A stretch of DNA of 64,000 nt, from assembly GCA_021774785.1 (NCBI GenBank), contig JAJFIQ010000019.1, positions 1,054,001-1,118,000 on the forward strand, in the 5' to 3' direction. Origin of the DNA: Emcibacter sp. GTDB lineage: Bacteria; Pseudomonadota; Alphaproteobacteria; Sphingomonadales; Emcibacteraceae. The notes below the pieces were generated by a model. The model ran no database searches. It was not told the DNA's origin and saw nothing but the letters and a program-made list of their open reading frames with translations. Numbering within the stretch: the stretch's first letter is position 1; the number at the start of each line of letters is the position of its first letter. Positions 5,381-11,989 of the stretch are shown one piece after another. The position numbers were made by a program, and so were the translations under genes.

Positions 5381-6955
5381 TCATTCGGAAACCATCTGCC
5401 AATTCAGGTCAAATTTCTGGAGATATTTGCGTAGCCTGTCCGCATCGTTGGTCACTTTTTTCTTTGACCGCGTTGCCGCATACAGGGTGCGCCCTGCAGC
5501 ACTTAGGGATTTCTCGGATCGACATATTTTAATCACCTGAGCCAGTTGCAACCGATCGAACAGGTCCATATGAGTAATCATTTCAGCCCCTAAAACATCT
5601 TCCACAATGGCATCTGAAGGGTTTTTTGAACCCGCATGCCAGGTTTTTGCCAGCCGTTCGATTTCAAATGTCACCTCTGTTACCGTGATACGCCCATTCT
5701 GGGCGAAGGTAGACATGCGGGTGATAGAAGCCGACAAGTCACGAAAATTAGCCGACCATACCGCCTCACCTGACAAAGCAAACTTCAGGTATTTGTCCCT
5801 GGCCTCCTTGTTAAAGGTGATTTTCTGGCCATTGTCTTCGGCATATTTTGTCAGCTCATAATCGATGTTGGGCTCAATATCCTCCCGACGGTCTTTCAAT
5901 CCCAGCATGTAGAATGTCCAAAGGTTCAGACGCGCCAGCAGGTCTTCCCGAAAGACACCCTTTGCCACCGCCTCATTCAAATCCCGGTTAGTACCTGCCA
6001 AAAGCTGAAAATCGCTGCCGGTTTCCTGATCCGCCCCCACCGGAAGGAACCGCCTCTCTTCTATGGCGCGCAGGATCATGGCCTGCTCGTCAAGGCCAAG
6101 TTCGCCGATCTCATCCAGAAACAATACCCCCTTGTCGGCGGTTTTTAGCAACCCGGCACGGTCGCTGGAGGCCCCGGTAAAGGCACCTTTCTTATGACCA
6201 AACAAGGCCGACATGGCACTGTCACCTTTAAGGGTCGCGCAGTTAACTTCGACCAGAAGGCCATCCACCTGATGGCGGCTTTTTTTCAGGTCATAAATAC
6301 GCCGGGCAAGCTGTGACTTTCCCGCGCCGGTTGGCCCCATCAGCAGGACCGGAGATTTTGTCCGGATGGTGACCTGCTCAATCTGATCAATCATCCGGTT
6401 GAATGTTTCATTGCGGGTCGAGATACCAGACTTCAGAAAAGACGTTGCTTGTTGCTGTTCAATCTGGAAACGGGTGGCGATCCGGTCATATTTGGACAGG
6501 TCCAGATCAATGATCGTATAAGTGCCTTCAACCCGGCGGCCCGGTGACGACTGGATCAGCTTGCCGGGGAAATAGCGCGCTTCAGTCAACAGGAACATAC
6601 AGATCTGCGCCACATGGGTGCCGGTGGTGATATGGATCAGATAATCTTCGTTATCGCTGTCAAACTCATAGCCGTCAGCAAAATCATGGAGTGCGCCATA
6701 TACCTCTTCAAAATCCCACGGATTTTTAAGTTCGACAATATGGCGGGTCACCTGGGTCTCTGGCGATATCTGCTGGATGTCTTTGACGATCCGTTTTGCC
6801 AAGGCTTCATTGCGTTTGTCATGAAGTAATTCATAGCTATCAATCAACAGATCTTCCTGCTGATGAAGACTGATGGTCGGACGCCAGCGTTCCCATCTCT
6901 TGTTCCGCCCGCCTGCCGCATCCAGAACCGTGCCTAAGAAACCAATGACTTTCAA
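5381..6955 (-). CDS. rtcR: RtcR, sigma54-dependent activator of RNA repair
   Basis: A 524-residue protein that matches E. coli RtcR (about 532 residues) along its whole length. Residues ~1-180 form the CARF-like sensor domain (start MKVIGFLGTVLD, conserved HITTGTHVAQIC and IIDLDLSKYD). Residues ~185-420 form the AAA+ sigma54-activator core, with Walker A GPTGAGKS near 206, the sigma54-contact loop GAFTGA near 257 and Walker B FLDEIGE near 277. Residues ~470-524 form the DNA-binding end (SLSAAGRTLY, NDADRLRKYLQKF). In Salmonella and E. coli the CARF domain is reported to respond to tRNA fragments, and it then activates rtcBA transcription. It is divergent from the rsr-rtcBA operon and faces the sigma54 promoter at 7110. 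The key activator motifs are intact. Confidence 0.97.
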   Translation of the reverse strand: MKVIGFLGTVLDAAGGRNKRWERWRPTISLHQQEDLLIDSYELLHDKRNEALAKRIVKDIQQISPETQVTRHIVELKNPWDFEEVYGALHDFADGYEFDSDNEDYLIHITTGTHVAQICMFLLTEARYFPGKLIQSSPGRRVEGTYTIIDLDLSKYDRIATRFQIEQQQATSFLKSGISTRNETFNRMIDQIEQVTIRTKSPVLLMGPTGAGKSQLARRIYDLKKSRHQVDGLLVEVNCATLKGDSAMSALFGHKKGAFTGASSDRAGLLKTADKGVLFLDEIGELGLDEQAMILRAIEERRFLPVGADQETGSDFQLLAGTNRDLNEAVAKGVFREDLLARLNLWTFYMLGLKDRREDIEPNIDYELTKYAEDNGQKITFNKEARDKYLKFALSGEAVWSANFRDLSASITRMSTFAQNGRITVTEVTFEIERLAKTWHAGSKNPSDAIVEDVLGAEMITHMDLFDRLQLAQVIKICRSEKSLSAAGRTLYAATRSKKKVTNDADRLRKYLQKFDLNWQMVSE

Positions 6956-6975
6956 AATAAATTCCTATCTTAATA

Positions 6976-7050
6976 TCTAATAAAATAGAATATATTATAA
7001 TTTATTTCTATTCAAGACTTTCCTTAAAGCTATAGTCTAATTTTATTAGA
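6976..7050. promoter_or_regulatory. Candidate RtcR enhancer sites
   Basis: Two similar short palindromic sequences lie in the AT-rich gap between rtcR and rsr: TCTAATAAAATAGA at 6976-6989 and TCTAATTTTATTAGA at 7036-7050. Their centres are about 60 bp apart, close to six helical turns, and the nearer one lies about 65 bp upstream of the -24 element. That is a suitable position for sigma54 upstream activator sites bound by RtcR. The binding itself is inferred. Confidence 0.4.
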
Positions 7051-7109
7051 TCTAAAAAACCATTTAAATTCAAAGCACTATAAAATAATTATCTCCCTGG
7101 CATCAGAAC

Positions 7110-7125
7110 TGGCACGGTCATTGCT
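7110..7125 (+). promoter_or_regulatory. Sigma54 (-24/-12) promoter of the RNA-repair operon
   Basis: The sequence TGGCACGGTCATTGCT matches the sigma54 consensus TGGCAC-N5-TTGC(A/T), with GG at 7111-7112 and GC at 7123-7124 separated by exactly ten bases. Transcription should begin near 7135, leaving a short leader before rsr at 7162. The divergent RtcR gene is the expected activator and RpoN is encoded at 59339-60892. Confidence 0.9.
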
Positions 7126-7161
7126 ATTCATTAGGTAAGTTTTTAATGAAGGAATAGAGAA

Positions 7162-8715
7162 ATGGCTAATTTGGCACTCTTTACATCGGTTGTAGGCAAG
7201 CTGCTCCCACGGGCGGATAGATTGAACCATGAAATGGCTCCGGCTTATGATTACACACCGCGTCACAAGCTGGCGCAGTATGCAGTCACCGGATGTCTCA
7301 ATGGAACATTCTATGCGTCAGCGTGGGAGCAGGCGGAGACCGTTCTGAAGCTGGTTAAGGATATTGATCCGGAATTTATTGCAAAGACCGCAGTCTATTG
7401 CCGGGAGAAAGGTCACATGAAAGATATGCCTGCCCTGTTGGCAGCCTCCCTTTCTGTTACCGGGCCGGAATATCTGGGACCGGTTTTTGGCCGGGTGATC
7501 AGAAACGGTAAAATGCTCCGTAATTTTGTCCAGATCATGCGCTCCGGCGTTGTGGGTCGCAAGTCTCTGGGCAGCCAGCCGAAGCGTCTGATCCAGAATT
7601 GGCTGAAAACAGCCTCTGATATTCAGTTGCTACGGGCTTCTGTGGGCAAATCGCCCTCTTTGGCGGATGTGATCAAGATGGTTCACCCCAGGCCAGAGAA
7701 TAAAGCCCGTGAGGCCCTGTTTGGCTATATTCTGGGCAAGAACCATAATGTGGAACTGCTTCCGGATGAGATCAGACAATTTGAAGCTTATAAAGCTGAT
7801 CGATCCGCAGGCGTTCCCGATGTTCCGTTCCAGATGTTGACAGCTTTGGCGCTTGATACTTCTGCCTGGGCCGAGATTGCACGCAATGCCGGCTGGCACA
7901 TGATCCGCATGAACCTGAACACTTTTGCCCGTCACGGCGTATTTAACGTGAAGGGCATGACTGAGATGATTGCGGAACGGTTGAGAAACCCGAAGGAGAT
8001 CAGAAAGGCTAAAGTTTTTCCATATCAAATCATGGTGGCTCATTCGATGGTGACAAATGATGTACCACAGGCGATCTGTGATGCCTTGCAGGAAGCACTG
8101 GAGATTTCATTGGATAATGTCCCGGAAATCAAGGGTCATATTGTGATCTGTCCGGATGTATCAGGATCCATGTCATCACCTGTTACAGGGTATCGTCCGG
8201 GGGCATCCACTGCGGTGAGATGTATTGATGTGGCAGCCTTGATTGCTTCGGCTTATCTGTACAAGAACAAAACTGCACGGATCATGCCCTATGAAGACAA
8301 GGTGGTTAATGTCAGGCTTAATGCCAGGGACAGCATCATGACAAATGCGGCAAAACTTGCGGCCATTGGCGGCGGCTGGACCAATTGTTCCGCCCCGTTG
8401 CGCAAGCTGAACCGTGAAAAGGCGGATGTGGATATGGTGATACTGGTTTCAGACAATGAATCCTGGATCGACAATATCCGTAATTCAGATACCGGCGTTA
8501 TGCGGGAATGGGCAAAACTTAAAGCCCATAATCCAAATGCCAAGCTGATCTGTATTGATATGCAGCCATATGGCATGACGCAGGCCAAGGAACGGGAAGA
8601 TATCCTCAATATTGGGGGCTTCTCAGATAATGTCTTCGACGTTATGGCGGCCTTTGCAAAGGAAGAACTTGGCGGCGATCACTGGATAGGAGAAATAGAG
8701 AAAGTAAAACTATAG
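7162..8715 (+). CDS. rsr: Rsr, bacterial Ro60 (TROVE-domain) RNA-binding protein
   Basis: A 517-residue protein. Residues ~15-300 form the HEAT-like TROVE ring that in Ro60 proteins binds Y RNA on its outer face and the ends of misfolded RNAs through its central hole. Residues ~325-510 form a von Willebrand factor A domain with a metal-site motif DVSGSMSS near residue 331 and VSDNESW later. An AAGGA ribosome site lies about eight bases before ATG 7162. In Deinococcus and Salmonella, Rsr with its Y RNA guides RNA processing by exonucleases such as PNPase. Here it is the first gene behind the sigma54 promoter, and the Y-RNA array starts at the very next base after its stop codon. The length and motifs are complete. 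Confidence 0.96.
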   Translation: MANLALFTSVVGKLLPRADRLNHEMAPAYDYTPRHKLAQYAVTGCLNGTFYASAWEQAETVLKLVKDIDPEFIAKTAVYCREKGHMKDMPALLAASLSVTGPEYLGPVFGRVIRNGKMLRNFVQIMRSGVVGRKSLGSQPKRLIQNWLKTASDIQLLRASVGKSPSLADVIKMVHPRPENKAREALFGYILGKNHNVELLPDEIRQFEAYKADRSAGVPDVPFQMLTALALDTSAWAEIARNAGWHMIRMNLNTFARHGVFNVKGMTEMIAERLRNPKEIRKAKVFPYQIMVAHSMVTNDVPQAICDALQEALEISLDNVPEIKGHIVICPDVSGSMSSPVTGYRPGASTAVRCIDVAALIASAYLYKNKTARIMPYEDKVVNVRLNARDSIMTNAAKLAAIGGGWTNCSAPLRKLNREKADVDMVILVSDNESWIDNIRNSDTGVMREWAKLKAHNPNAKLICIDMQPYGMTQAKEREDILNIGGFSDNVFDVMAAFAKEELGGDHWIGEIEKVKL

Positions 8716-8814
8716 ATTTCAGGGGGAATACCTCAATGAATACATCGATCCAAACTTCACTGATCTGAAAAGATCAGGAACAGATATCATTGAAAAACCT
8801 TGTCCCCCTGAAAT
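8716..8814 (+). ncRNA. Y-RNA-like module 1 (no tRNA-like cargo)
   Basis: A 12-bp perfect terminal helix joins 8716-8727 to 8803-8814. Inside it comes the conserved internal loop, GAATACC on the 5' side and ACCTTGTC on the 3' side, then an upper helix TCAATGA/TCATTGA and ATC/GAT. The interior holds a 7-bp hairpin CTGATCT-GAAA-AGATCAG with a GNRA loop. This is the shape of a Ro-binding Y-RNA stem without an added tRNA-like domain, similar in idea to the simpler member of Salmonella YrlA/YrlB pairs. It begins immediately after the rsr stop codon. Confidence 0.85.
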
Positions 8815-8818
8815 TCTG

Positions 8819-8952
8819 GAGAAAAGGCGAATGCCTGTGGAACTACATCATTGTTACTGACCATGTCGCGGGTTCGAGTCCCGCCAGAATTAACAATTCT
8901 GTAGCTCAGTTGGTAGAGCAGGATGTTTCACAAAACCTTGTCGCCCAATCTC
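8819..8952 (+). ncRNA. yrlA: YrlA-like Y RNA with circularly permuted tRNA domain (module 2)
   Basis: The outer helix GAGA/TCTC and GGCGA/TCGCC (8826-8830 with 8941-8945 region) is followed by the Ro-site signature GAATGCC ... ACCTTGTC and an upper helix TGTGGAA/TTTCACA plus CATC/GATG. The part inside (8850-8921) is a permuted tRNA. A T-arm (8868-8884; stem GCGGG/CCCGC, loop TTCGAGT) runs into a 7-bp acceptor helix CAGAATT/AATTCTG closed by the loop AAC (8892-8894), then the linker TA and a D-arm with stem GCTC/GAGC (8904-8919). The Y stem stands where the anticodon arm would be. This matches the known architecture of bacterial YrlA RNAs. Confidence 0.92.
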
Positions 8953-8971
8953 TTGATGGATTAAAATTTAA

Positions 8972-9046
8972 TGGAAAGTAGCTCAGTGGTAGAGCAGAGG
9001 CCTGTTAAGCCTAAGGTCGTAGGTTCGATCCCTACCTTTCCAGCCA
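8972..9046 (+). tRNA. tRNA-Asn (GUU) embedded in the RNA-repair operon
   Basis: A 75-nt cloverleaf. The acceptor is TGGAAAG/CTTTCCA with discriminator G and encoded CCA. Linker TA is followed by D-stem GCTC/GAGC and anticodon stem GAGGC/GCCTA with loop CTGTTAA (anticodon GTT at loop positions 3-5). The variable loop is AGGTC, and the T-arm has stem GTAGG/CCTAC with loop TTCGATC. U1-A72 and G73 agree with asparagine tRNAs. The only flaw is a G-A opposition at the top of the anticodon stem (27:43). It lies between Y modules 2 and 3 in the same orientation, so it should be cut from the sigma54-driven transcript. Confidence 0.85.
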
Positions 9047-9064
9047 AATAATGGCATTAATTAA

Positions 9065-9184
9065 ATTGGGGGAACGGGCGAATGCCTGCGAGATTACATG
9101 GGAAAAGCTAACGCTTTGAGGTTCAAGTCCTCGGTCTCTTCGAAAGAAGATGGCAAATCTCGCACATACTTGTCGCCCACCAAT
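9065..9184 (+). ncRNA. Y-RNA-like module 3 with partial tRNA-like cargo
   Basis: The outer helices are ATTGG/CCAAT (9065-9069 with 9180-9184) and GGGCGA/TCGCCC (9076-9081 with 9173-9178). The internal loop signature is GAATGCC ... CTTGTC, and there is a perfect 9-bp upper helix TGCGAGATT/AATCTCGCA (9087-9095 with 9156-9164). The 60-nt interior has a hairpin AAAGC-TAAC-GCTTT that looks like the extra arm of a Leu/Ser-type tRNA. A T-arm (GAGG/CCTC with loop TTCAAGT, 9118-9132) follows, then an acceptor-like hairpin TCTTC-GAAA-GAAGA. No D-arm is present, so the tRNA mimicry is reduced to the T-arm/acceptor half. Confidence 0.8.
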
Positions 9185-9188
9185 ATTC

Positions 9189-9318
9189 GCGGTGAATGCC
9201 GGTGAGATTACATAGGTTAGAGCACCTGTTGAAAAACAGGAGGTCGGAGATTCAATTTCTTCCGCCGTTTACAAACGGCTGTAGCTCAGAAAACATCTCA
9301 CTAAACCCTTGTCACCGC
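9189..9318 (+). ncRNA. Y-RNA-like module 4 with Y stem in the tRNA D-loop
   Basis: The terminal helix is GCGGTGA/TCACCGC (9189-9195 with 9312-9318), the signature GAATGCC ... CCTTGTC, and the upper helix GTGAGAT/ATCTCAC. The cargo is a permuted tRNA with a different breakpoint from module 2. The D-stem is split, GAGC at 9220-9223 and GCTC at 9284-9287. After GAGC come a hairpin CCTGT-TGAAAA-ACAGG resembling a Phe (GAA) anticodon arm with a six-base loop, the variable loop AGGTC, a T-arm GGAGA/TCTTC with loop TTCAATT (9246-9262) and a 6-7-bp acceptor-like hairpin GCCGTT/AACGGC. The join between acceptor and D-stem is irregular. Confidence 0.8.
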
Positions 9319-9357
9319 ACTTAAATTAATAAAAGATAGAAAGTGAAGGATAAAAAA

Positions 9358-10584
9358 ATGACAGATCGGAATTATGACATCATAGCAGAAACTTCTGCGA
9401 CCCCGATCAAAATGTGGACACGGGGTGTCCCCGTTGATGACGGGGCAAAGCAGCAGCTCATAAAAACGGCACAGATGCCTTTCATCCATAAACATCTGGC
9501 GGTGATGCCGGACGTTCATGTGGGCAAAGGCTCCACCATTGGCAGTGTTATCCCCACCAAAGGGGCCATCATTCCGGCGGCGGTGGGCGTTGACATTGGC
9601 TGTGGCATGATGGCGGTACGTACCAGCCTGAGCGCCAATGACCTGCCTGATAATCTGGGCCATATCCGTTCTGCCATTGAGCGGGCAGTGCCCCATGGGC
9701 GCTCATCCGGCCGTGGCAAGCGGGATAAAGGGTCATGGCATGACATCCCAGGTAAAACCGCCGACGCCTGGAAACATCTGGACGCCGGGTTTCAGCGCAT
9801 GGTTGAGACCACTCCGCGCCTTAAGAAAACTAATAATGTTGTTCATCTTGGAACTCTTGGTACCGGCAATCATTTCATCGAGATCTGCCTTGATGAGGGG
9901 GATCAGGTCTGGTTCATGCTTCATTCCGGATCACGCGGTGTGGGAAATGCCATCGGCAGCCATTTCATCGCTCTGGCCCGCAAAGACATGGAACAGTGGA
10001 TGATCAATCTGCCGGACCGGGATCTGGCCTATCTGCCCGAAGGCACCGATCATTTTAATGATTATGTCTTTGCGGTTGAATGGGCACAGAATTACGCACG
10101 GCTTAACCGTGAAGTGATGATGTCCAATGTGATCGAGGCTGTACGAAACGTGATGCCCATGCCCTTTGATGCGGAACTGGAGGCGGTCAACTGCCACCAT
10201 AACTATGTCAATCGGGAGCATCATTTCGGCGAAGATATCTTTGTCACCCGCAAGGGCGCCGTGCGTGCTCGCAAGGGTGATATGGGGATCATTCCGGGCA
10301 GTATGGGGGCACGGTCCTTCATCATACGCGGCCTTGGTAACGAGGACAGCTTTTGCAGCTGTTCCCATGGTGCCGGACGCGTAATGTCCCGAACCGAAGC
10401 CAAACGGGTAGTATCGATGGAGCAACATCTCAAGGCGGTATCAGGTGTGGAATGCCGGCAGGATATCGGTGTGCTTGACGAAACACCGTCAGCCTACAAA
10501 GACATCGATAAAGTGATGGAAGCCCAGAAAGATCTGGTGGAAATCGTCCATACCTTGAAACAGGTGGTCTGTGTGAAGGGCTAA
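9358..10584 (+). CDS. rtcB: RtcB, RNA-splicing ligase
   Basis: A 408-residue protein from ATG 9358, the same length as E. coli RtcB. The start is supported by AAGGA at 9345-9349; an earlier in-frame GTG at 9343 would put the ribosome site inside the gene. It is a GTP- and Mn-dependent ligase that joins RNA 2',3'-cyclic phosphate or 3'-phosphate ends to 5'-OH ends. Metal-site residues are in DIGCGM (Cys82), HSGSRGVGN and NCHHNYVNREHH. The guanylylated histidine is His337 in SCSHGAGRVMSR, the same number as in E. coli. All catalytic motifs are intact. It follows the Y-RNA array and precedes rtcA by 50 bp in one operon. Confidence 0.98.
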   Translation: MTDRNYDIIAETSATPIKMWTRGVPVDDGAKQQLIKTAQMPFIHKHLAVMPDVHVGKGSTIGSVIPTKGAIIPAAVGVDIGCGMMAVRTSLSANDLPDNLGHIRSAIERAVPHGRSSGRGKRDKGSWHDIPGKTADAWKHLDAGFQRMVETTPRLKKTNNVVHLGTLGTGNHFIEICLDEGDQVWFMLHSGSRGVGNAIGSHFIALARKDMEQWMINLPDRDLAYLPEGTDHFNDYVFAVEWAQNYARLNREVMMSNVIEAVRNVMPMPFDAELEAVNCHHNYVNREHHFGEDIFVTRKGAVRARKGDMGIIPGSMGARSFIIRGLGNEDSFCSCSHGAGRVMSRTEAKRVVSMEQHLKAVSGVECRQDIGVLDETPSAYKDIDKVMEAQKDLVEIVHTLKQVVCVKG

Positions 10585-10634: not shown

Positions 10635-11669
10635 ATGACTGAAAAACACATTATTATTGATGGCTCTATGGGCGAAGGCGGCGGGCAGATATTGCGCTCC
10701 GCTTTGTCTTTGTCCATGATCACGGGCACGCCCGTGACATTGAAGAATATACGTGCCGGCCGTAAAAAGCCCGGCCTGATGCGTCAGCATTTGACCTGCG
10801 CCCGGGCGGCTGCGGAAATTTGCGATGGCGATATTGGGAATATAGGAGTCGGATCAGCTGAACTGACCTTCGCGCCCGGCAAGGTCAAAGCCGGAGACTA
10901 TCATTTTACCATTGGCACGGCGGGCAGCACCACTTTGGTCGCCCAAACGGTTATCCCTGCCCTGATGTTGTTGGGTCAGACTTCAACTATACGCCTCGAA
11001 GGCGGCACCCATAACATGAAATGCCCGCCTTATGAGTTCATTGAACAGTGTTTTTTGCCTGTGCTGAGACGTATGGGCGCGGATATTTCCAGTGAATTGT
11101 ACAAATATGGTTTCTACCCGGCAGGTGGCGGCATGATGTCTGTTGCTATCGGGGCAGCAAAGTCGCTCAAACCCATAGAGATGATCAATCGCGGCAAGGA
11201 AAAAAGCTTGCAGGCAGAGGCCTTCATATCCAAAATTCAAGTTGAAATAGCTGAACGGGAATTAAAAGTTGTCGGAAAAAGGCTCGGCTGGATGGAAGAG
11301 CAGTTGAAAGTACGCAGCATATCGCATGCTGTCAGCCCCGGTAACATCCTGCTGTTAAAACTCGAATTTGAACAAGGGGTGGAAATCGTTTCCGGCTTTG
11401 GTGCTTTTGGCATCTCCGCAGAAAATGTGGCAAAGAACGCCTGCAAGGCCGCCAACCGCTATCTCAACAGTGAAGCCGTCGTCGGCCCTTATCTGGCGGA
11501 TCAATTGCTGTTGCCGATGGCGCTGGCTGGCGGCGGTCAGTTCACCACCCTGCGCCCGAGCCTGCATCTGAAAACCAACATAGATGTCATTCAAAGGTTC
11601 TTGGATGTGAAGATAACTCTGGAAGAAATCAAACCCGGCCTGTGGCTGGTGAATGTGGAGAAAGTTTGA
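10635..11669 (+). CDS. rtcA: RtcA, RNA 3'-terminal phosphate cyclase
   Basis: A 344-residue protein, near the usual ~340. It converts an RNA 3'-phosphate to a 2',3'-cyclic phosphate with ATP via an adenylated histidine, preparing ends for RtcB. The signature GEGGGQILR lies at residues ~11-20, GTAGSTTLVAQT near 98-108, and the cyclase motif with catalytic histidine in PSLHLKTNIDVI near the C-terminus, aligning with the known His of E. coli RtcA. A GGGGG ribosome site precedes the ATG. Its stop overlaps the start of the next small gene by one base (TGATG at 11667-11671), so translation is coupled. Confidence 0.97.
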   Translation: MTEKHIIIDGSMGEGGGQILRSALSLSMITGTPVTLKNIRAGRKKPGLMRQHLTCARAAAEICDGDIGNIGVGSAELTFAPGKVKAGDYHFTIGTAGSTTLVAQTVIPALMLLGQTSTIRLEGGTHNMKCPPYEFIEQCFLPVLRRMGADISSELYKYGFYPAGGGMMSVAIGAAKSLKPIEMINRGKEKSLQAEAFISKIQVEIAERELKVVGKRLGWMEEQLKVRSISHAVSPGNILLLKLEFEQGVEIVSGFGAFGISAENVAKNACKAANRYLNSEAVVGPYLADQLLLPMALAGGGQFTTLRPSLHLKTNIDVIQRFLDVKITLEEIKPGLWLVNVEKV

Positions 11670-11989
11670 TGCAGGTTGATAAATATCTAGAGATGCATAA
11701 AAAAGGGGCAAGTCATAATGATCTGGTTAGCCAATTATATCAGGATAGTTTAAGTCCGATGCAAGCAATAAAAATTATCAGAGCACTACTTTCCGTAGCA
11801 CTAGGGGATGCCAAACAAATAGTTATGTCAAAAGGGCTTTGGTCGAACCCCTATACGCCAGAAGTAGTCGATCAGATTCTAACAGATATCCAACAAGATG
11901 AAAATTGTGAAATTATGGAAAAAGACGGACATATTTCGATCAACATCAACCTTGTTGATAAGCTGAAAGTGGGAAATGACGAAAGCTGA
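11669..11989 (+). CDS. Small L7/L12-C-domain-like protein of the RNA-repair operon
   Basis: A 106-residue protein from the ATG at 11669 that shares an A with the rtcA stop. An upstream in-frame start at 11642 would lie inside rtcA and is not needed. The stretch SPMQAIKIIRALLSVALGDA (about residues 29-48) followed by KQIV resembles the ribosomal L7/L12 C-terminal fold (VIKxVR...LGLKEAKxLV), which often marks ribosome- or factor-binding adaptors. The rest is charged and helical. It overlaps the next gene (rlaP) by 14 bp. The position between rtcA and the nucleotidyltransferase gene suggests a part in RNA repair. The L7/L12 resemblance is by eye and the function is unknown. Confidence 0.6.
   Translation: MQVDKYLEMHKKGASHNDLVSQLYQDSLSPMQAIKIIRALLSVALGDAKQIVMSKGLWSNPYTPEVVDQILTDIQQDENCEIMEKDGHISININLVDKLKVGNDES

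What the first reader, a model, noticed from the sequence alone, without database searches (positions are those of the whole stretch)
8716..9318. Array of four Y-RNA-like modules between rsr and rtcB
Seen: four consecutive hairpin modules, each with the paired signature GAAT(A/G)CC and CTTGTC flanked by perfect lower and upper helices (see feature entries). Known: rsr-linked Y RNAs (Yrl) usually occur as one or two copies next to rsr or rtcBA. Four modules in a row with different internal cargo, in one transcript with the RNA ligase, suggest a diversified set of Ro60 gates or tRNA mimics. The number and diversity are the unusual part.
Basis: partly seen in the sequence, partly recalled or inferred. 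Interest (0 to 1): 0.88.

Follow-up and report, generated by a model that had tools for sequence, protein, structure and literature searches.

The report
Y-RNA array with diversified tRNA look-alikes
Between a bacterial Ro60 gene and an RNA-ligase gene lie four small Y RNAs and one real tRNA gene; three of the Y RNAs carry differently rearranged imitations of a tRNA without an anticodon, and two of those designs fall below the threshold of the public library's Y-RNA model.

Summary
In detail: four Y-RNA modules lie between rsr (Ro60) and rtcB in an RtcR/sigma54-type RNA-repair operon. The number is ordinary: 90 bacterial rsr loci have a median of four modules. The diversity is real. Module 1 is stem-only; module 2 is a classic YrlA (81.6 bits). 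Module 4 (class B) is a nearly complete, circularly permuted tRNA entered by the Y stem through the D loop, with a GNRA tetraloop instead of an anticodon loop. Module 3 (class C) is a minimal elbow-plus-acceptor mimic. Both classes recur beside rsr elsewhere with strong covariation, and models built without the window pick its copies (100.9 and 70.7 bits). Outside the window some class B modules are isotype-coherent (Leu-type with long, Pro-type with short variable arm). Modules 3 and 4 score below Rfam's YrlA threshold. Most likely they are Rsr-bound tRNA mimics without the damage-prone anticodon loop, acting as decoys or adaptors during tRNA damage; this role is inferred. A new variant of a known kind.

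The parts
5381..6955 (-). rtcR, sigma54-dependent activator with RtcR sensor domain
   Evidence: Pfam RtcR 274.5 bits, Sigma54_activat 166 bits
7110..7125 (+). sigma54 (-24/-12) type site TGGCACGGTCATTGCT, 36 nt before the rsr start codon
   Evidence: only zero-mismatch site among the 43 matches with up to 2 mismatches in the window; consensus pattern recalled
7162..8715 (+). rsr, bacterial Ro60 (TROVE + vWA)
   Evidence: Pfam vWA_Ro60 72.7 bits, TROVE 36 bits; D. radiodurans Rsr 2nvo E 1.7e-23
8715..8815 (+). Y1: stem-only Y RNA, 13-bp lower helix, 7-bp upper helix, no tRNA-like part recognised
   Evidence: (z -6.0); R2 model 39.0 bits over 8722-8808
8825..8946 (+). Y2: classic YrlA (class A): T arm - closed acceptor hairpin - D arm; the Y stem takes the place of the anticodon arm
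   Evidence: Rfam RF02553 81.6 bits over 8824-8950, gathering score 69
8972..9046 (+). intact tRNA-Asn(GUU) gene with encoded GCCA end
   Evidence: ARAGORN; Rfam tRNA 71.2 bits over 8972-9043
9076..9178 (+). Y3: class C, GG of a D loop + short arm + T arm + closed acceptor-like hairpin, no D stem, no anticodon
   Evidence: R2, built without the window, 70.7 bits, best of five hits in the window; YrlA model 39.6 bits, below its cut-off 69
9189..9318 (+). Y4: class B, permuted tRNA entered through the D loop
   Evidence: R1, built without the window, 100.9 bits, E 3.1e-23; other modules 55.7 and 55.1; YrlA model 23.7 bits
9215..9223 (+). Y4: G18G19 and 3' strand of D stem (GGTTAGAGC)
   Evidence: sequence; D stem columns in A2
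9225..9240 (+). Y4: anticodon arm CCTGTT-GAAA-AACAGG, GNRA tetraloop instead of an anticodon loop
   Evidence: sequence, fold
9241..9245 (+). Y4: variable loop AGGTC
9246..9262 (+). Y4: T arm GGAGA-TTCAATT-TCTTC
9263..9281 (+). Y4: acceptor strands joined by TACA (closed; one bulged T)
9282..9289 (+). Y4: U8, A9, 5' strand of D stem, A14, G15 (TAGCTCAG)
9358..10584 (+). rtcB RNA ligase
   Evidence: Pfam RtcB 439.8 bits
10635..11669 (+). rtcA RNA 3'-phosphate cyclase
   Evidence: Pfam RTC 256.6 bits
11976..12797 (+). RlaP, polymerase-beta-like protein of RNA repair
   Evidence: Pfam RlaP 290.8 bits

Best explanation
The interval encodes four Rsr-type Y RNAs and one tRNA-Asn, probably co-transcribed with rsr and rtcB from a sigma54/RtcR promoter that answers to broken tRNAs. 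Each Y RNA has the same lower stem plus internal loop (expected Rsr docking site) and a different head. Y1 has a plain stem-loop. Y2, Y3 and Y4 carry three different rearrangements of a tRNA: Y stem in place of the anticodon arm (Y2), Y stem in place of the D stem with only GG, a short arm, T arm and acceptor-like hairpin kept (Y3), and Y stem inserted in the D loop of an otherwise complete tRNA body (Y4). All three keep the elbow (T loop, GG) and a closed acceptor stem, and all three lack an anticodon loop. I infer that they work as uncleavable tRNA look-alikes held on the Rsr ring, made just when tRNAs are being cut. They occupy or recruit the proteins that grip tRNA elbows and acceptor stems (the attacking anticodon nuclease, decay or repair enzymes), so that broken tRNAs can be resealed by RtcA/RtcB. 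The tRNA-Asn would replace lost tRNA and, through RNase P and 3' processing, would cut the transcript between Y2 and Y3. Shown: anatomy, operon order, structural conservation, and restriction to rsr loci in the genomes scanned. Inferred: transcription as one unit, Rsr binding, decoy or adaptor action, processing.
For: Operon and regulator. Class B structure on 36 modules of other genomes: 95.0% of cells paired against 75.3 +/- 0.8 in shuffles (0 of 500 as high), 30 of 36 pairs with changes on both sides, 40-58% paired when partners are slid. tRNA tertiary-core letters kept in class B although the chain is permuted: U8 35/36, A14 35/36, GG 35/36, U54 U55 C56 A58 36/36, position 15-48 pair G-C 31, U-A 1, A-U 1, other 3. 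Anticodon arms of the same 36: 21 have 4-nt loops, one a 5-nt loop, one a 7-nt loop (CGAAAAA, no U33); the simple parse did not resolve the other 13. Class C: 96.0% paired against 76.6 +/- 1.2, 12 of 18 pairs double-changed. Window copies, left out of the models, are hit. Specificity: in 398 genomes of the phylum R1 matched (E <= 1e-9, strict filters) in 8, all among the 10 with Rsr. Isotype coherence outside the window: long variable arm in 9 of 9 parsed Leu-type modules, 0 of 49 parsed Pro-type and generic ones. Hughes et al. 2020 (PMC7790460; passages seen): RtcR is activated by tRNA 5' fragments ending in cyclic phosphate, no YrlA fragments were seen when tRNAs were cut, and the authors offer competitive inhibition of the nuclease as one possibility. 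Rsr binds the lower stem of bacterial Y RNAs (PMC4726728, passages).
Against: No expression, processing or binding data. Isotype marks could be relics of captured tRNA genes. The window's own Y4 is of the generic type, so isotype targeting is not seen in this genome. Class B is not detected in many rsr loci (R1 >= 74 bits in 50 of 91 sources) and not in the 42 phage loci (best 56.1 bits), so it is not required wherever Rsr is. No anticodon nuclease was looked for. The Y3 acceptor-like hairpin is weak (5 bp). The relatives sampled are the 80 best of at least 584 matches and so lean towards close homologues of this Rsr.
Confidence: 0.5

Rival explanations
1. Adaptor rather than decoy: the tRNA-like heads recruit elbow- or acceptor-binding enzymes (PNPase as in RYPER, RNase P, tRNA-modifying enzymes, RlaP) to Rsr, so that each Y RNA steers the ring to a different partner or substrate class.
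For: PMC8394870 (passages) reviews that Rsr and Y RNA form the RYPER machine with PNPase and that YrlA is modified by DusA and TruB. A median of four modules per locus with different heads fits several partners. Classes A, B and C all keep T arm and acceptor.
Against: Isotype-coherent D and variable arms outside the window are not needed by generic elbow binders.
Confidence: 0.35
2. Relics: modules 3 and 4 are decaying by-products of tRNA genes that recombined into Y-RNA arrays, without a function of their own beyond Rsr binding.
For: tRNA genes do sit in or next to some arrays (window tRNA-Asn; seven tRNAs after the array of L106), so capture is plausible.
Against: Covariation in the helices counted, tertiary-core letters kept, recurrence in Alpha-, Beta- and Gammaproteobacteria and in two Verrucomicrobiota MAG records (class B).
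Confidence: 0.1
3. The hairpins are mainly cis elements: processing sites or translation spacers that set the rsr : rtcB ratio.
For: They lie between two cistrons and the tRNA-Asn would be cut out. In the three other loci looked at (L061, L101, L102) the gene after the array is also an RtcB, two of them divergent.
Against: Conserved Rsr-type internal loop in every module, different heads, no excess of terminator-like sites (2 found, 2.1 expected in 6900-9400, neither inside the array).
Confidence: 0.05

Closest known systems
YrlA (Rfam RF02553), bacterial Y RNA with tRNA-like domain
   Same: Y2 is a member (81.6 bits). Y3 and Y4 share the Rsr-type stem, the T arm, the acceptor hairpin and the place beside rsr.
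   Different: Y3 (39.6 bits) and Y4 (23.7) fail the family score of 69. In Y4 the Y stem enters through the D loop and an anticodon-arm hairpin is present; in Y3 the D stem is gone.
YrlB and other stem-type bacterial Y RNAs
   Same: Y1 has the stem and internal loop without a recognised tRNA-like part.
   Different: Sequence not compared with Salmonella YrlB; its primary papers are not held.
Permuted two-piece tmRNA of certain bacteria (PMC10085705, passage)
   Same: Permuted gene with a tRNA-like domain (the latter recalled).
   Different: No tag reading frame looked for or seen; in Y2-Y4 of the window the acceptor is closed and has no CCA.
Circularly permuted tRNA genes (PMC3978253, start of abstract in listing; PMC10085705, passage)
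   Same: Parts of a tRNA encoded in reversed order.
   Different: Those are circularised and cut to give standard tRNAs. Y4 has no anticodon and stays tied to a Y stem.

Membership tests
YrlA (RF02553) | covariance-model score at or above the curated 69 bits | tested here: met
   Y2 only: 81.6 bits. Y3 39.6 and Y4 23.7 do not meet it; Y1 not reported
YrlA (RF02553) | order T arm - acceptor - D arm, Y stem in place of the anticodon arm | tested here: met
   met by Y2 only; not met by Y3 (no D stem) and Y4 (D stem split around the Y stem)
bacterial Y RNA (Rsr ligand) | lower stem and internal loop GA-ATRCC / CTTG-TC, encoded beside rsr | tested here: met
   all four modules
bacterial Y RNA (Rsr ligand) | bound by Rsr in the cell | not testable with these tools
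   needs pull-down
Class B, D-loop-entry Y RNA (defined here) | match to R1, built without the window, clearly above other Y RNAs | tested here: met
   Y4 100.9 bits; Y3 55.7, Y2 55.1. Across 91 sources there is a gap between 74.3 and 67.2 bits, but Leu-type members (not in the model) score 53.7-66.1, below it
Class C, elbow-acceptor Y RNA (defined here) | match to R2, built without the window, above other Y RNAs | tested here: met
   Y3 70.7 bits; Y2 54.0, Y4 46.8, Y1 39.0. Less sharply separated: over 27 other loci R2 scores run without a clear gap
functional tRNA gene | cloverleaf with anticodon loop in normal order | tested here: not met
   Y2-Y4 fail; only 8972-9046 passes ARAGORN. Sub-threshold tRNA-model matches overlap Y2 (27.4) and Y4 (22.8; threshold 29)

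The most novel reading that the evidence does not exclude
Bacterial Ro60 RNA-repair operons carry a panel of isotype-marked, anticodon-free, circularly permuted tRNA decoys (Leu-, Pro- and generic types), each mounted on the Ro60 ring through a different point of the tRNA body. Made in response to tRNA cleavage, they blunt isotype-selective tRNA nucleases while RtcB reseals the broken tRNAs.
Probability: 0.25. Interest if true: 0.87.

Novelty: new variant of a known kind. Interest (0 to 1): 0.62.

Why it matters
What Y RNAs do in bacterial RNA-repair operons is open: Hughes et al. 2020 (passages seen) list tRNA decay and nuclease inhibition as possibilities only. Two recurrent, covariation-supported classes that keep the tRNA elbow and acceptor but lack the anticodon loop give a direct test: which protein is held by each class, and whether the isotype of a mimic matches the tRNA that is cut. 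Rfam's YrlA model at its threshold undercounts Y RNAs beside rsr: 9 hits in 15 loci, against about four modules per locus with R2 (108 matches in 27 loci, E <= 1e-5; the two sets of loci overlap only in part).

Tried and rejected
A first structural parser for classes A and B was too loose: it called 49 class B modules against 38.7 in a null with shuffled flanks, and 98 class A against 39.4. I dropped it and relied on motif selection, alignment counts and covariance models built without the window. The RNAalifold consensus of class C did not resolve the acceptor hairpin, because linkers differ in length, so that helix is not in the counted structure; its presence rests on per-sequence pairing (29 of 31 have at least 5 bp, L109 and L119 none by that test). 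Chance repeats or terminators: rejected. 'Unusually many copies': rejected. The idea that the array tRNA-Asn is the genome's only one: rejected; a second, different tRNA-Asn exists (L019). No close phage source for the tRNA-Asn was found: the best-ranked, full-length phage match is 82.8% (four records show 90-95% over part of the query). An L068 tRNA-Gly call by ARAGORN coincides with an R1 hit (84.0 bits) and looks like a Y module misread as a tRNA. I had taken the gene after the array in two Rhizobiales loci for something other than rtcB; a Pfam scan shows divergent RtcB proteins, so that argument was dropped.

Rows left out: the 36-row class B alignment left out the window copy and three Leu-type modules (L099, L106, L121) of 40 distinct sequences. 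The 28-row class C alignment left out the window copy, L048:8394-8503 and L056:7909-8034 (the last is class B by R1, 89.8 bits) of 31. Three loci are held twice (L005/L061, L006/L112, L008/L101) and count twice in per-source tallies.

Literature: searches were. Chen 2014, Wang 2018, Sim and Wolin 2018 and Sim 2020 are not held, so I cannot say that classes B or C are unpublished. I only saw no description of them in the passages read, and in the window and 15 loci scanned at Rfam's gathering level no Y-RNA hit on them (one class B module, L102, reaches the tRNA model at 31.7 bits).

Full report
1. What is there. The window carries an RNA-repair operon: rtcR on the minus strand, then rsr, the interval in question, rtcB, rtcA, a small unassigned frame and RlaP. 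A perfect sigma54-type site, TGGCACGGTCATTGCT, ends 36 nt before the rsr start codon. It is the only zero-mismatch match in 64 kb; 43 matches with up to two mismatches were found and 36.8 expected. Rsr aligns with the solved D. radiodurans Rsr (2nvo, E 1.7e-23). That RtcR answers to tRNA 5' fragments ending in cyclic phosphate is from Hughes et al. 2020 (PMC7790460, passages).

2. The four modules are real. All four have GAATRCC and CTTGTC between complementary helices. The finder's noise is 1.6 hits per shuffled 64 kb. All four fold better than dinucleotide shuffles on average (z -6.0, -2.2, -3.1, -4.2; module 2 is reached by 6 of 200 shuffles, module 3 by 2). A model built from other genomes' modules (R2) recovers exactly these four above noise: 70.7, 54.0, 46.8 and 39.0 bits, next 12.1. 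Rfam gives YrlA for module 2 (81.6 bits) and sub-threshold YrlA scores for modules 3 and 4 (39.6 and 23.7; threshold 69). A second, dissimilar tRNA-Asn exists elsewhere in the genome (L019).

3. Four copies are ordinary. I searched for Rsr in 147 relatives (2 of 147, the genome itself included), in 398 genomes of the phylum (10 of 398, itself included), in genome contigs (best 80 of at least 584 kept) and in viral contigs (42 loci). In 90 bacterial loci with at least 1 kb downstream of rsr, the window among them, the finder sees a median of 4 modules; 50 have four or more, 20 have one or two, one has none (false positives of the finder are possible).

4. Class B: tRNA entered through the D loop (module 4). 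Modules like Y4 recur. I aligned 36 from other genomes (A2; selection). The proposed six helices (lower, upper, D, anticodon, T, acceptor) pair in 95.0% of cells, against 75.3 +/- 0.8% after shuffling and 40-58% when partners are slid. 30 of 36 pairs show changes on both sides; the acceptor is the weakest helix (83.8% of cells). The structure was chosen on this alignment, which favours it over the slid versions. The D stem is formed by strands on opposite sides of the Y stem. In A2 its second pair is A-U in 26, C-G in 8 and unpaired in 2; the eight C-G rows look like Mesorhizobium and its kin, so they may be one event. Other D-stem switches seen outside A2 are GCGC/GCGC in L102 (Scleromatobacter) and GAAC/GTTC in L048 and L049 (Labrys). 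The tRNA core is kept: U8 35/36, A14 35/36, GG 35/36, A21 33/36, U54 U55 C56 A58 36/36, and position 15-48 is G-C in 31, U-A in 1, A-U in 1 and otherwise in 3 (tRNA numbering recalled). The anticodon loop is gone as far as parsed: 21 of 36 arms end in 4-nt loops, one in a 5-nt loop, one in a 7-nt loop without U33; 13 were not resolved by the simple parse. The window copy, left out of the model, scores 100.9 bits (E 3.1e-23) and has a 6-bp arm capped by GAAA. Across 91 sources (window included), 60 hits in 50 sources score at least 74 bits and the next score is 67.2. Of these 60, 36 are training rows, 2 are duplicate loci of training rows, one is the window and 21 are new; I read the 21, and 20 have the D-loop-entry order clearly, while the D stem of L068:2057-2192 is uncertain. 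In 398 genomes of the phylum R1 matches (E <= 1e-9, with the stricter filters of a large search) in 8, all of them among the 10 that encode Rsr. Five of the eight reach class B level (100.9-127.1 bits); four of these five gave training sequences. No phage locus exceeds 56.1 bits.

5. Isotype marks (not in the window). Among the 150 best R1 hits, 73 have class B order by motif, in 55 of 91 sources: 36 generic, 13 with GGATAGAGC/GGACAGAGC, 12 Pro-type (T[AG]GCGCAG with GGTAGCGC) and 12 Leu-type (TGGCGGA with GGTA[AG]ACGC) (two low-scoring generic calls, L064 and L081, were not checked by eye; L006 and L112 are the same locus). In this genome's own 36 other tRNAs those D-arm combinations belong to tRNA-Pro and tRNA-Leu. 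Leu-type modules also carry a long variable arm: 9 of 9 in which it could be parsed (12 modules; three not parsed), against 0 of 49 parsed Pro-type and generic ones. D arm and variable arm thus go together as in real tRNAs. Shared ancestry among Rhizobiales means these are not 12 independent cases; Leu-type is also seen in L104 (Variovorax) and L106 (Caulobacterales MAG).

6. Class C: elbow plus acceptor (module 3). 31 modules, the window's included, were picked by motif: GG after the UACA(U) of the Y stem, then a T arm, then an acceptor-like hairpin, with no D stem (one of them, L056, is class B by R1). In 28 from other genomes (A4) lower, upper and T helices pair in 96.0% of cells against 76.6 +/- 1.2, 12 of 18 pairs double-changed. 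The acceptor hairpin varies in length and was not counted in columns. The model R2, built without the window, gives Y3 70.7 bits, above Y2 (54.0) and Y4 (46.8). Y3 has a weak acceptor (5 bp). This class is less sharply separated than class B.

7. How it most likely works. Shared design: Rsr-type docking stem, kept elbow and closed acceptor, no anticodon loop, three different mounting points. Made when tRNAs are cut, such RNAs can occupy or recruit tRNA-gripping proteins without being cut themselves. Hughes et al. saw no YrlA fragments when tRNAs were cut and offer competitive inhibition as a possibility. I put the decoy or adaptor reading at 0.5 overall. The adaptor-only rival (0.35) is close and not separable by sequence. 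The tRNA-Asn may replace lost tRNA or serve as a processing site, or both. None of this is shown experimentally.

8. Novelty. Y2 is a YrlA. Y1 is a stem-type Y RNA. Y3 and Y4 are not YrlA by Rfam's score. In 15 loci scanned at gathering level Rfam reports YrlA (9 hits), tRNA genes in L102 and L106, and one tRNA-model hit inside a class B module (L102, 31.7 bits). The key primary papers are not held, so prior description cannot be excluded.

Noticed in passing
window 8972-9046: Intact tRNA-Asn(GUU) inside the Y array, different from the genome's other tRNA-Asn. In 66 of the 80 named bacterial rsr loci (those with both flanks) only one (L106) has tRNAs within 2.5 kb downstream. Best-ranked phage tRNA-Asn 82.8% identical.
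   Followed up: partly
class A modules of other loci, e.g. L005, L007, L049, L051, L070, L089: 36 of 91 strictly parsed classic YrlA-type modules encode NCCA exactly at tRNA positions 73-76 (1.4 expected); 0 of 42 class B and 1 of 31 class C do. 13 of the 36 have G3:U70, the alanine identity pair (recalled), and all 13 have A73 (related loci, not independent). They could be processed to two-piece, chargeable RNAs. The window's Y2 lacks this.
   Followed up: partly
L126-L167 (viral contigs): Phage rsr genes often sit among tRNA genes: of 34 with both 2.5-kb flanks, 14 have 38 tRNAs downstream and 12 have 58 upstream; 9 and 6 loci within 300 nt (several contigs are near-duplicates).
   Followed up: partly
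L106:8390-8990: Caulobacterales MAG: seven tRNA genes (Gln, Arg, Leu, His, Asn, Pro, Tyr) directly after a Y array that includes a Leu-type mimic.
   Followed up: no
window 8812-8818 and 8895-8901: AATTCTG, the 5' acceptor strand of Y2 (8895-8901), also occurs upstream in the Y1 stem. It allows a competing non-permuted tRNA-like fold at 8812-8892 (27.4 bits, below the threshold of 29).
   Followed up: no
window 11642-11989: 115-aa frame between rtcA and RlaP, overlapping both, without a Pfam or NCBIfam match.
   Followed up: no
L008:3374-3505 and relatives (L080, L085, L092, L100, L101, L108, L116): A further recurrent Rhizobium Y-RNA head with the constant CGCTCTCTGGCACGAGCGGGGCCATCC after the T arm, not assigned to class A, B or C.
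   Followed up: no
L101:8334-9752, L061:4149-5573: The RtcB encoded after the Y array in these two loci is divergent (97.1 and 107.2 bits to Pfam RtcB over its C-terminal part, against 439.8 for the window's RtcB).
   Followed up: no
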